This document shows positions 31,972 to 40,726 of a stretch of 64,000 bases of DNA, piece after piece. The DNA is from Cynocephalus volans. Taxonomy: Eukaryota > Chordata > Mammalia > Dermoptera > Cynocephalidae. The stretch's first letter is position 1; every line of letters starts with the position of its first letter. The notes below the pieces were generated by a model. It was not told where the DNA came from and did not search any database. It saw only the letters and a program-made list of their open reading frames with translations. The translations under genes and the position numbers were made by a program. The stretch covers positions 114,396,133-114,460,132 of the forward strand of contig NC_084463.1 in the NCBI RefSeq assembly GCF_027409185.1, given 5' to 3'.

Positions 31972-32425
31972 TGAAAGAAGTGTTTTCCAAGCTAGCCGCA
32001 GTAACGCCATTCCGCAAGGCCAAGAAATTCATAAAGGGGTGTGCGAGGTAGACTGATTTAGCTTATGCCATTTTTACTGTTTGAAAAGTGTTCTTGTTTA
32101 AAAGCCCCCCAACACCTGTGGTAAAAATTGAAGGTTAAAAATTGTGCTGTACTTAAAAAAATTTTAAGTTCTGCCTGCCTTTGCTGTTTCCCACCTATGC
32201 TGTCTCTGACTGATAACACCAAGAGCTGTATCTGGATGTATCTAGACAACCTAAGGAAGAAACCGCCCTGTGAAAGTTTTTGCTGTCCCTAAGTGATTAA
32301 CTCGCTTCTTTCAGCTTCTGTTATCAGCTTGCACTAGGCCTCCCAGAGCAGTTTCCAGGGCGCCCTTCAACTGTTTCAAGAACTCCCACATGACCGGAGC
32401 CCACCCCTGGCCTTGTTTAAACCGA

Positions 32426-32473
32426 CCAATTACCTTGCTTCTCGCTTCTGTACCCGCGCTTTTTGCTATAAAA
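32426..32473 (+). promoter_or_regulatory. 5' LTR promoter: CCAAT box and TATA box
   Basis: CCAAT at 32426-32430 and TATAAAA at 32467-32473 are spaced as in gammaretroviral U3 promoters. The inferred cap site is about 32497. No tandem enhancer repeat is seen in this U3. Confidence 0.88.
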
Positions 32474-32542
32474 CAAGCTCAAAAACTCTACTCGGCGCGC
32501 CAGTCCACCGAGAGACTGAGCCGCCCGGGTACCCGTGTATTC

Positions 32543-32548
32543 AATAAA
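32543..32548 (+). promoter_or_regulatory. Polyadenylation signal in 5' LTR R region
   Basis: AATAAA lies within R, followed by CTCTTGC-type cleavage-site sequence. In the 5' LTR it is normally bypassed. Confidence 0.85.
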
Positions 32549-32642
32549 ACCTCTTGCTAATTGCATCCGAAGCCGTGGTCTCGTTGTTCCTTGGGAGGGT
32601 CTCTCCTGACTGAGTGATTGCCCAAATCAGGCGTCTCTCATT

Positions 32643-32660
32643 TGGGGGCTCGTCCGGGAT
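32643..32660 (+). other. Primer-binding site, tRNA-Pro type
   Basis: TGGGGGCTCGTCCGGGAT follows the 5' LTR after two T residues. This 18-mer is the standard gammaretroviral site for the 3' end of tRNA-Pro, which primes minus-strand DNA synthesis. It appears undamaged. Confidence 0.95.
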
Positions 32661-32698
32661 CAGACCCCCACCCAGGGACCACCGACCCACCAACGGGA

Positions 32699-37639: not shown

Positions 37640-37646
37640 CTTAGCG
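37640..37646 (+). promoter_or_regulatory. Candidate env splice acceptor
   Basis: A pyrimidine run (CCCTCCTTCCCTTAG, AG at 37643-37644) lies in the integrase coding region about 360 bases before the env ATG, where gammaretroviral env acceptors are found. Confidence 0.65.
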
Positions 37647-38004
37647 CTGCTCAGAGCCAGGAATACCCCTGGCCAGTTTGGTCTAACTCCTTATGAAATT
37701 CTCTATGGGGGACCGCCCCCCATACTCGAGTCTGGAGGGACATTGAGTCCCGATGATAATTTTCTCCCTGTCTTATTTACTCATTTAAAGGCTTTAGAAG
37801 TTGTGAAGACCCAGATCTGGGACCAGATCAAGGAGGTGTACAAGCCCGGTACCGTGACAATCCCCCACCCGTTCCAGGTCGGAGACCGAGTGCTTGTCAG
37901 ACGCCACCGACCCAGCAGCCTTGAGCCTCGGTGGAAAGGCCCGTACCTGGTGTTGCTGACCACTCCGACCGCAGTAAAAGTCGACGGTATTGCTGCCTGG
38001 GTCC

Positions 38005-40014
38005 ATGCTTCTCACCTCAAGCCTGCACCACCCTCGGCACCAGATGAGTCTTGGGAGCTGGAAAAGACTGATCATCCTCTTAAGCTGCGTTTTCGGCGGC
38101 GGCAGAACGAGTTGGAATGAAAACCCTCACCAGCCTGTGACCCTCACCTGGCAGGTACTGTCCCAAACTGGGAACGTTGTCTGGAAGACAGAGAAAGTCC
38201 AGCCCCCTTGGACTTGGTGGCCCATTCTTACACCTGATGTATGTGCCCTGGCGGCCGGTCTTGAGTCCTGGGATATCCCAGAAACCGATGTATCAACCTC
38301 TAAGAGAGTCAGACCCCCTGACTCAAACTATGAGAGCGCTTATAGACAGATCACCTGGGGAGCCATAGGATGCAGCTACCCTAAGGCTAGGACCAGAATG
38401 GCAAGTTCCACCTTCTACGTGTGTCCCCGGGATGGCCGGTCCCGTTCAGAAGCTAGAAGGTGTAGAGGGCTAGAATCCCTGTATTGTAAAAAATGGAGTT
38501 GTGAAACCACGGGGACTGTTTATTGGCAACCTACGTCCTCCTGGGACCTCATAACTGTAAAATGGAATGGCACAGAGCGATCATGGGGTGCCCTACTGGC
38601 AACCTGTAAAAAAACCGGCTGGTGTAACCCCCTTAAAATAAATTTCACAGAACAAGGACGGCAATCCAAAGAGTGGATAATAAGAAAAACCTGGGGATTG
38701 GGATTCTATGTGTCTGGATATCCAGGCGTACAGTTGACCATTCGGTTAGAGATCACCAGCAAGCCAGCTGAGACAGTGGGCCCCAACTCCGTCCTTGCGA
38801 AACAAGGACCCCCTAACAAAAACCCCCCTTCCCCAACGAGGGAAGCGCCGCCCATCTCTCAACCCTCGGCGGCTCCTAGCCAAGTCCCCACGGTACTGGA
38901 GGAAAGTGTTGTCCTGAACACTCTGTCTCCAACCACGGGCGACAGACTCTTTGGCCTTGTGAGGGGGGCCTTCCTAGCCTTAAATGCTACCGACCCAGAC
39001 GCCACGAAGTCTTGCTGGCTCTGTTTGGCCTTGGGTCCCCCTTATTATGAAGGAGTTGCCTCCTTAGGAGGGGCCTTCACTTATACCTCCAACTATACCC
39101 AGTGCCGCTGGGGGAGCCAAGGAAAGCTTACCCTCACTGAGGTCTCAGGACACGGGTCGTGCATAGGAAAGGTGCCCTCTACCCATCAGCATCTTTGCAA
39201 TCAGACCCTACCCATCAACTCCTCCACGAACCATCAGTACCTGCTCCCCACCAACCATAGCTGGTGGGCCTGCAGCACCGGCCTCACCCCCTGCCTCTCC
39301 ACCTCAGTTTTTAATCAGTCTAAAGATTTCTGTATCCTGATCCAGCTGGTCCCTCGCATCTATTACCATTCTGAAGAAACTTTGTTGCAGGCCTATGACG
39401 ATCCTCACCCCAGGGTTAAAAGAGAGCCTGTCTCACTTACCCTAGCTGTTCTTCTGGGGTTGGGGGTCGCAGCAGGTATAGGTACTGGCGCATCCGCCCT
39501 AGTTAAAGGGCCCATAGACCTCCAACAAGGCCTAACCAGCCTCCAGACCGCCATGGATACTGACCTCCGGGTCCTCCAGGACTCAATCAGCAAGCTGGAG
39601 GACTCGCTGACTTCCCTATCGGAGGTAGTACTCCAAAATAGAAGAGGCCTTGACCTACTGTTTCTAAAAGAAGGAGGCCTCTGCGCGGCCCTAAAAAAAG
39701 AGTGCTGTTTTTATGTAGACCACTCAGGTGTGGTGCGAGACTCCATGAGAAAACTCAAAGAGAGACTAGATAAAAGACAGATGGAGCGCCAGAAAAACCA
39801 AAACTGGTATGAAGGGTGGTTCAATAGCTCCCCTTGGTTCACTACCCTCCTATCAACCATCGCCGGGCCCCTATTGCTCCTCCTTCTGTTGTTCACCCTC
39901 GGGCCCTGCATCATCAATAGGTTAGTCCAGTTCATCAATGACAGGGTAAGTGCAGTAAAAATTCTGGTCCTTAGACAAAAGTATCAGACCCTAGACAACG
40001 AAGACAACCTCTAA
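38005..40014 (+). CDS. env: Env glycoprotein (SU and TM), complete open reading frame
   Basis: This is a 669-residue envelope precursor that overlaps the last 116 bases of pol in another frame. The ATG at 38005 opens it. A second ATG at 38044 lies just before the hydrophobic signal (RLIILLSCVFG), and an upstream TTG at 37990 is not needed. SU covers residues 1 to about 473. It contains a CETTG motif at residues 166-170 (38500-38514), a proline-rich hinge around 38760-38910, and the CWLC isomerase motif at residues 337-340 (39013-39024) that links SU to TM. Furin cleavage is at RVKR (39412-39423). TM has the fusion peptide, a heptad-repeat region, an immunosuppressive-type segment at 39631-39681, CX6CC at residues 560-568, a leucine-rich membrane span and a tail with YQTL. 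Nine N-glycosylation sequons are visible. No stop or frameshift is present. CETTG is known from infectious GALV-type envelopes. Receptor use (PiT-1 in relatives) is inferred only. Confidence 0.96.
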   Translation: MLLTSSLHHPRHQMSLGSWKRLIILLSCVFGGGRTSWNENPHQPVTLTWQVLSQTGNVVWKTEKVQPPWTWWPILTPDVCALAAGLESWDIPETDVSTSKRVRPPDSNYESAYRQITWGAIGCSYPKARTRMASSTFYVCPRDGRSRSEARRCRGLESLYCKKWSCETTGTVYWQPTSSWDLITVKWNGTERSWGALLATCKKTGWCNPLKINFTEQGRQSKEWIIRKTWGLGFYVSGYPGVQLTIRLEITSKPAETVGPNSVLAKQGPPNKNPPSPTREAPPISQPSAAPSQVPTVLEESVVLNTLSPTTGDRLFGLVRGAFLALNATDPDATKSCWLCLALGPPYYEGVASLGGAFTYTSNYTQCRWGSQGKLTLTEVSGHGSCIGKVPSTHQHLCNQTLPINSSTNHQYLLPTNHSWWACSTGLTPCLSTSVFNQSKDFCILIQLVPRIYYHSEETLLQAYDDPHPRVKREPVSLTLAVLLGLGVAAGIGTGASALVKGPIDLQQGLTSLQTAMDTDLRVLQDSISKLEDSLTSLSEVVLQNRRGLDLLFLKEGGLCAALKKECCFYVDHSGVVRDSMRKLKERLDKRQMERQKNQNWYEGWFNSSPWFTTLLSTIAGPLLLLLLLFTLGPCIINRLVQFINDRVSAVKILVLRQKYQTLDNEDNL

Positions 40015-40041
40015 ATTCGCTCTAAGATTAGAGCTTCCCAC

Positions 40042-40057
40042 AAGAGAAATGGGGGAA
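40042..40057 (+). other. Polypurine tract
   Basis: AAGAGAAATGGGGGAA directly abuts the 3' LTR and would prime plus-strand synthesis. A single T at 40050 is usual in this group. Confidence 0.9.
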
Positions 40058-40726
40058 TGAAAGAAGTGTTTTCCAAGCTAGCCGCAGTAACGCCATTCCG
40101 CAAGGCCAAGAAATTCATAAAGGGGTGTGCGAGGTAGACTGATTTAGCTTATGCCATTTTTACTGTTTGAAAAGTGTTCTTGTTTAAAAGCCCCCCAACA
40201 CCTGTGGTAAAAATTGAAGGTTAAAAATTGTGCTGTACTTAAAAAAATTTTAAGTTCTGCCTGCCTTTGCTGTTTCCCACCTATGCTGTCTCTGACTGAT
40301 AACACCAAGAGCTGTATCTGGATGTATCTAGACAACCTAAGGAAGAAACCGCCCTGTGAAAGTTTTTGCTGTCCCTAAGTGATTAACTCGCTTCTTTCAG
40401 CTTCTGTTATCAGCTTGCACTAGGCCTCCCAGAGCAGTTTCCAGGGCGCCCTTCAACTGTTTCAAGAACTCCCACATGACCGGAGCCCACCCCTGGCCTT
40501 GTTTAAACCGACCAATTACCTTGCTTCTCGCTTCTGTACCCGCGCTTTTTGCTATAAAACAAGCTCAAAAACTCTACTCGGCGCGCCAGTCCACCGAGAG
40601 ACTGAGCCGCCCGGGTACCCGTGTATTCAATAAAACCTCTTGCTAATTGCATCCGAAGCCGTGGTCTCGTTGTTCCTTGGGAGGGTCTCTCCTGACTGAG
40701 TGATTGCCCAAATCAGGCGTCTCTCA
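40058..40726 (+). repeat. Provirus 3' LTR (669 bp)
   Basis: Same length and, by base-by-base reading, same sequence as the 5' LTR (offset 8086). CCAAT is at 40512-40516 and TATAAAA at 40553-40559, so it could also promote transcription rightwards into flanking DNA. Confidence 0.96.
40629..40634 (+). terminator. Proviral polyadenylation signal (3' LTR)
   Basis: AATAAA in R of the 3' LTR, followed by CCTCTTGCTAATTGCA. It is the expected 3'-end-processing signal for the viral RNAs. Confidence 0.88.

What the first reader, a model, noticed from the sequence alone, without database searches (positions are those of the whole stretch)
31972..40726. Very young GALV/KoRV-like provirus in a colugo-type genome
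The sequence shows a full-length gammaretrovirus with 669-bp LTRs that match at every base I compared, a perfect 4-bp GTGT duplication and only two coding lesions. GALV/KoRV-type viruses are known as exogenous or recently endogenised agents in gibbon, koala, Asian-Australasian rodents and bats. A germline copy in a colugo, a Southeast Asian glider, would add a host and place the lineage in the region where GALV emerged. With an assumed neutral rate of 2-4.5e-9 per site per year over 1338 LTR sites, zero differences implies an age below roughly 0.5-1 million years, unless gene conversion reset the LTRs.
Basis: partly seen in the sequence, partly recalled or inferred. Interest (0 to 1): 0.96.

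Follow-up and report, generated by a model that had tools for sequence, protein, structure and literature searches.

The report
Young GALV-like provirus in Philippine colugo
This is a very recent, nearly complete copy of a gibbon-ape-leukaemia-type retrovirus in the genome of the Philippine flying lemur, one of a large family of near-identical copies that was already described in print in 2025.

Summary
Window 31972-40726 is a full-length gammaretroviral provirus: two 669-nt LTRs with 0 differences, a perfect GTGT duplication and two coding lesions, a gag frameshift and an RNase H stop. The host is Cynocephalus volans (contig-length match). Env falls inside the GALV/KoRV clade.

The novelty claim fails. 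Tsangaras, Mayer and Greenwood (Sci Rep 2025, PMC11928578) described this family, CynVolERV-A (86 proviruses), in this species; gag PRPPIY and PPPY and env CETTG place this copy there. It is not alone: 40 of 40 scored LTR hits (of 1370 candidates) are 98-100% identical, in 20 pairs.

Added here: both lesions are private among the sisters read (13 and 29). In about half of the provirus, 4 of 4 private substitutions (stop codon left out) are G-to-A, one carried by both LTRs; sisters show 30 G-to-A against 11 C-to-T. Much of the divergence may date from reverse transcription. The copy lies 25.6 kb upstream of RRAS2 exon 1.

The parts
31968..31971 (.). target-site duplication GTGT, 5' copy
   Evidence: read; matched to 3' copy
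31972..32640 (+). 5' LTR, 669 nt, TG...CA; CCAAT 32426, TATAAA 32467, AATAAA 32543
   Evidence: 0 differences to 3' LTR
32643..32660 (+). primer binding site, tRNA-Pro type (label recalled)
   Evidence: sequence shown
32806..33084 (+). 93-codon open leader in frame with gag, ending in a strongly hydrophobic stretch; glyco-gag-like
   Evidence: leader matches gag relatives P0242 (95% over 87 aa), P0244 (54% over 56) and Mus caroli gag P0248 (51% over 70); open in 14 of 14 closely related copies read. Openness alone is weak: 279 of 5000 shuffles of it are open
33085..34413 (+). gag (MA, CA), carrying PRPPIY and PPPY; frame broken in an A-run near 34400 before the NC zinc finger
   Evidence: 0 of 13 sister copies share the lesion, 12 of 13 are open here, and the other is closed by a further length difference
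34623..34684 (+). gag stop codon and gag/pol translational readthrough signal
   Evidence: Rfam RF01073, 70.6 bits
34626..38120 (+). pol (PR, RT, RNase H, IN), one in-frame stop at 36615-36617 in RNase H
   Evidence: 0 of 29 sister copies read has a stop in the 601-base piece examined
38005..40014 (+). env, 669 codons from the first ATG, open; CETTG, CWLC and RVKR present; overlaps pol by 116 nt
   Evidence: nearest named relatives GALV
40043..40057 (+). polypurine tract
   Evidence: sequence shown
40058..40726 (+). 3' LTR, 669 nt
   Evidence: 0 differences to 5' LTR
40727..40730 (.). target-site duplication GTGT, 3' copy
6286..6393 (-). host gene RRAS2, coding part of exon 1 with GT after it, in a CpG-rich stretch; start codon 25.6 kb from the 5' LTR
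   Evidence: best PDB match R-Ras2, E 1.9e-16

Best explanation
This is a recently inserted germline provirus of the published GALV-like family CynVolERV-A in the Philippine flying lemur. It entered by ordinary gammaretroviral reverse transcription and integration with a 4-bp target duplication (shown by its anatomy). It has since changed hardly at all. The copy is defective in gag and pol, and other copies in the same genome are open at those places. Germline rather than somatic origin is inferred from the published family, not shown for this locus. How CynVolERV-A spread (repeated reinfection, complementation, or both) is inferred, not shown.
For: Anatomy. Host: contig C21 of the window's assembly is 111317787 bp, the same length as the contig of P0136, named [Cynocephalus volans]. 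Clade: Env in a KoRV+GALV set of 9 rows at 95/97 support, sister to GALV at 82/86. Subgroup: PRPPIY, PPPY, CETTG, as published for subgroup A. Multicopy: 40 of 40 scored LTR matches (1370 candidates) 98-100% identical, forming 20 pairs with the window's own; 40 of 40 scored env-piece matches (498 candidates) at least 99%. Youth: 0 of 669 LTR sites differ, 95% upper bound about 1.0 My at 2.2e-9 or 0.5 My at 4.5e-9; 11 of 14 pairs read, the window's included, have 0 differences.
Against: The published supplementary table was not open here, so this exact locus was not matched to a listed provirus. One named C. volans contig matches the assembly exactly; two others (of P0006, and P0277) are 3.2 and 2.6 kb longer than the nearest assembly contigs seen, presumably another assembly version. 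The Env sister position to GALV has moderate support only, and Pol could not be tested against named GALV or KoRV Pol.
Confidence: 0.96

Rival explanations
1. An older insertion whose LTRs were made identical again by gene conversion.
For: Three of 13 copies with readable flanks on both sides lack a perfectly matching target duplication, so exchange between copies may happen in this family. The published authors also name gene conversion as a possible bias.
Against: This copy has a perfect target duplication. Its first 1500 internal bases equal those of another copy (0 of 1500 differences), and 4 private substitutions were found in about 4.8 kb compared, stop codon left out. Conversion between LTRs would not tidy the interior.
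Confidence: 0.05
2. One or both lesions are assembly errors, the gag one above all because it lies in a homopolymer run.
For: The gag frameshift is a length change in an A-run, is shared by 0 of 13 sister copies read, and is a common type of sequencing error (recalled).
Against: Another sister copy has a closed frame in the same gag piece, and the RNase H stop leaves the reading frame in register on both sides, so it is not of the homopolymer kind.
Confidence: 0.25
3. A somatic or exogenous infection of the sequenced animal rather than a germline insertion.
For: The family is very young, largely open, and reported as transcribed.
Against: The copy stands in a chromosome-sized contig (169 Mb), and reads of the family were reported from several other individuals (about the family and not this locus).
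Confidence: 0.03

Closest known systems
CynVolERV-A (Tsangaras, Mayer and Greenwood, Sci Rep 2025, PMC11928578)
   Same: Host, clade, full gene set, PRPPIY/PPPY/CETTG motifs, near-identical LTR pairs, many copies; almost certainly one of its 86 proviruses.
   Different: This copy has a gag frameshift and a pol stop, whereas 73 of 86 are reported with full-length ORFs. Locus identity was not checked against the supplement.
GALV / WMV (exogenous gammaretroviruses)
   Same: Env 76-79% identical to four named GALV entries and sister to them in the tree.
   Different: Env differs by about a fifth, most in the middle of SU, 52-61% identity in residues 181-300; endogenous here.
KoRV
   Same: Same starred 9-row Env set; KoRV is reported as a virus now entering the germline of its host.
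   Different: Env 69-72% identical; the two KoRV rows form their own branch.
Hervey pteropid gammaretrovirus, MmGRV and SaGRV (bats)
   Same: Gag 89% to SaGRV; Env 68% to MmGRV and 70% to HPG.
   Different: The HPG and MmGRV Envs branch outside the KoRV+GALV+window set.

Membership tests
Gammaretrovirus | MA/CA gag, PR-RT-RNaseH-IN, TLV_coat env in simple order | tested here: met
Gammaretrovirus | gag/pol in one frame with readthrough signal | tested here: met
   RF01073 at 34623-34684; NC and pol in the same frame, while the MA-CA part is out of frame by the lesion
Gammaretrovirus | 4-bp target duplication, tRNA-Pro type PBS | tested here: met
   (PBS type label recalled)
GALV/KoRV clade | Env placed with GALV and KoRV to the exclusion of other gammaretroviruses | tested here: met
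   95/97 support, 9 rows of 23
GALV/KoRV clade | Pol placed with named GALV and KoRV Pol | tested here: inconclusive
   No named GALV or KoRV Pol among the 120 hits listed of 855. Tree joins it to 'Gammaretrovirus sp.' and a C. volans protein at 100/100.
CynVolERV-A | PRPPIY and PPPY in Gag, CETTG in Env | tested here: met
CynVolERV-A | host Cynocephalus volans | tested here: met
CynVolERV-A | sequence match to the published subgroup or listed locus | not testable with these tools
   supplementary look-ups capped at 0
CynVolERV-B/C | PQPPVL in Gag (TPPY also in C); env deletion in most B1 | tested here: not met
   (PQPPVL and TPPY sought, not found); env open

The most novel reading that the evidence does not exclude
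Most divergence between CynVolERV-A copies was laid down during reverse transcription, by cytidine deaminase editing or RT error, and not after insertion. The gene-based ages in print (about 1.8-3.4 My for subgroup A) would then be inflated, and the family would still have been inserting within the last 0.1 My or so, with many copies still polymorphic.
Probability: 0.45. Interest if true: 0.5.

Novelty: already known. Interest (0 to 1): 0.3.

Why it matters
As a sequence feature it confirms a published case: a GALV-type virus that recently colonised the germline of a primate relative in the Philippines. If so, that would help to reconcile the two differing age estimates in print.

Tried and rejected
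Viral-contig scan with an RT piece: 6 stretches matched a pattern, 0 relatives confirmed. Pfam scan of ten flanking reading frames: only a Ras-family trace under Pfam's cut-off (18.4 against 21.6 bits), which led to RRAS2. The mosaic idea for gag (MA less alike than CA to P0242) was not pursued, because P0242 comes from an unnamed source. Age from a single LTR pair gives only an upper bound, so 14 pairs were pooled: 2 to 4 differences, mean 0.05-0.10 My; these pairs are among the best matches to the window and so a biased sample. Against deaminase editing: the share of G-to-A changes in GA/GG context (21 of 30 in sisters) is not clearly above the background share of 57% (p 0.20), and a per-copy sign test gives p 0.07; editing is suggested, not shown.

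Full report
What is there. Window 31972-40726 is a full-length gammaretroviral provirus. The LTRs, 31972-32640 and 40058-40726, are 669 nt each and identical at every site; the identity stops exactly at both edges. GTGT flanks the element on both sides. A proline-type primer binding site (type recalled) follows the 5' LTR and a polypurine tract precedes the 3' LTR. Pfam finds MA and CA, protease, RT, RNase H, integrase and the TLV_coat Env in the expected order, and Rfam finds the gag/pol readthrough signal. Proviral CpG content (0.54-0.63 observed/expected) is well above the flanks (0.20-0.21), as one expects of young DNA (the last clause is inference).

Lesions. gag is frameshifted in an A-run near 34400, before the zinc finger; pol has one in-frame stop in RNase H; env is open. 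Both lesions are private to this copy among those read. For gag, 0 of 13 sister copies share the lesion; 12 of 13 are open across the piece and the thirteenth is closed by a further length difference. For RNase H, 29 of 29 sister copies read have no stop in the 601-base piece; these are 29 of the 39 scored matches other than the window's own. Copies intact at these places therefore exist in the same genome.

Host. The assembly has 2.81 Gb in 130 contigs. Two other named contigs are 2.6 and 3.2 kb longer than the nearest assembly contigs seen, so the assembly versions may differ. The repeats include many copies of a tRNA-Ile-headed SINE, which fits the colugo CYN family as I recall it; a literature search and passages of one colugo paper did not confirm that. 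The window holds RRAS2 exon 1 (6286-6393, minus strand), so the provirus sits 25.6 kb upstream of that gene, pointing away from it.

Clade. Env is 76-79% identical to the four named GALV Envs, 69-72% to two KoRV Envs, 70% to Hervey pteropid gammaretrovirus and 68% to MmGRV. In a 23-row tree it falls in a nine-row set with GALV and KoRV (95/97) and beside GALV (82/86). The Gag tree puts it in a seven-row set (100/99) with SaGRV, three C. volans proteins and two unnamed ones. The RT tree joins it to an entry named Gammaretrovirus sp. and to a C. volans protein (100/100), but no named GALV or KoRV Pol was among the 120 hits listed of 855, so Pol alone does not test the clade.

What is known. I read parts 1-4 of 6 of PMC11928578, that is the main text up to the start of the reference list, and none of its supplements. 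It reports 86 CynVolERV-A, 183 B1, 158 B2 and 5 C proviruses in C. volans. All 86 of subgroup A carry PRPPIY, 84 carry PPPY and 75 carry CETTG; groups B and C carry PQPPVL apart from one B2 copy. LTR ages for subgroup A average about 0.10 My, while gag, pol and env ages average 1.8-3.4 My. A search for the name CynVolERV finds that one paper only. The paper says that screening Galeopterus failed to find KoRV/GALV-like sequences; passages of PMC11341202 list one partial, mutated ERV in Galeopterus, which that paper treats as adjacent to the clade.

A family, not a lone copy. In the same genome the LTR query gave 1370 candidates, of which 40 were scored; all 40, the window's two included, are full length or lack two bases and are 98-100% identical, and they form 20 LTR pairs. 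A 1201-base env piece gave 498 candidates, 40 scored, all at least 99% identical. A 601-base RNase H piece gave 719 candidates, 40 scored, all at least 99%. These are capped lists and so lower bounds.

Age. Of 14 pairs read (of 20, the window's included), 11 have no difference, two have one, and one has two at its edge. Pooled, 2-4 differences give a mean of 0.05-0.10 My, close to the published value, though these are among the pairs most like the window. Target duplications match in 10 of 13 copies with readable flanks.

How its private changes arose. Across the LTR, the first and last 1.5 kb of the interior and two 601-base pieces (about 4.8 of 8.8 kb), the window differs from all sisters read (13, or 29 for the RNase H piece) at 4 sites, the stop codon being left out; all 4 are G-to-A on the coding strand, followed by A or G. 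One of the four lies in the LTR and is present in both LTRs, so it was in place before the LTRs were doubled, unless conversion copied it. In 13 sisters, single-copy changes show 30 G-to-A against 11 C-to-T (p 0.0008 for strand asymmetry), while A-to-G and T-to-C are balanced, 19 to 16 (four of the five pieces, without RNase H). Host mutation after insertion should be strand-symmetric, so this points to changes made during reverse transcription. The limits are plain: the GA/GG context is not clearly enriched (p 0.20), the per-copy sign test gives p 0.07, and only about half of the provirus was compared. The reading would help to explain why gene-based ages in print exceed LTR-based ages.

Verdict. 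Observation confirmed, interpretation supported, novelty low because the family and host are published. The remaining interest lies in the replication-time origin of divergence and in a clean locus for insertion genotyping.

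Noticed in passing
32806-33084: A 93-codon open leader in frame upstream of gag ends in a hydrophobic segment, like glyco-gag; open in 14 of 14 copies read, 51% identical over 70 residues to the leader of a Mus caroli gag. An abstract in a search listing says KoRV can potentially encode glyco-gag (PMC4528783).
   Followed up: partly
6286-6393: RRAS2 exon 1 in a CpG-rich stretch; the provirus lies 25.6 kb upstream in divergent orientation, so an effect on RRAS2 could be asked.
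   Followed up: partly
L012 and L011 (C2:93.6), L013 and L008 (C4:111.5), L018 and L019 (C3:101.9): Three sister proviruses have no perfectly matching target duplication, possibly from recombination between copies or local change.
   Followed up: no
33085-34410: Gag MA differs more from its closest relative P0242 than CA does, with an 8-residue gap in the stretch before PRPPIY, a possible recombination breakpoint.
   Followed up: no
7893-7966, 10293-10368, 14469-14548 and others: tRNA-Ile-headed SINE copies in the window, useful as a colugo marker if they are the CYN family.
   Followed up: partly
P0006: A database protein that its source names SLC23A2 of C. volans is an Env of this retrovirus group, an annotation error or fusion model.
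   Followed up: no
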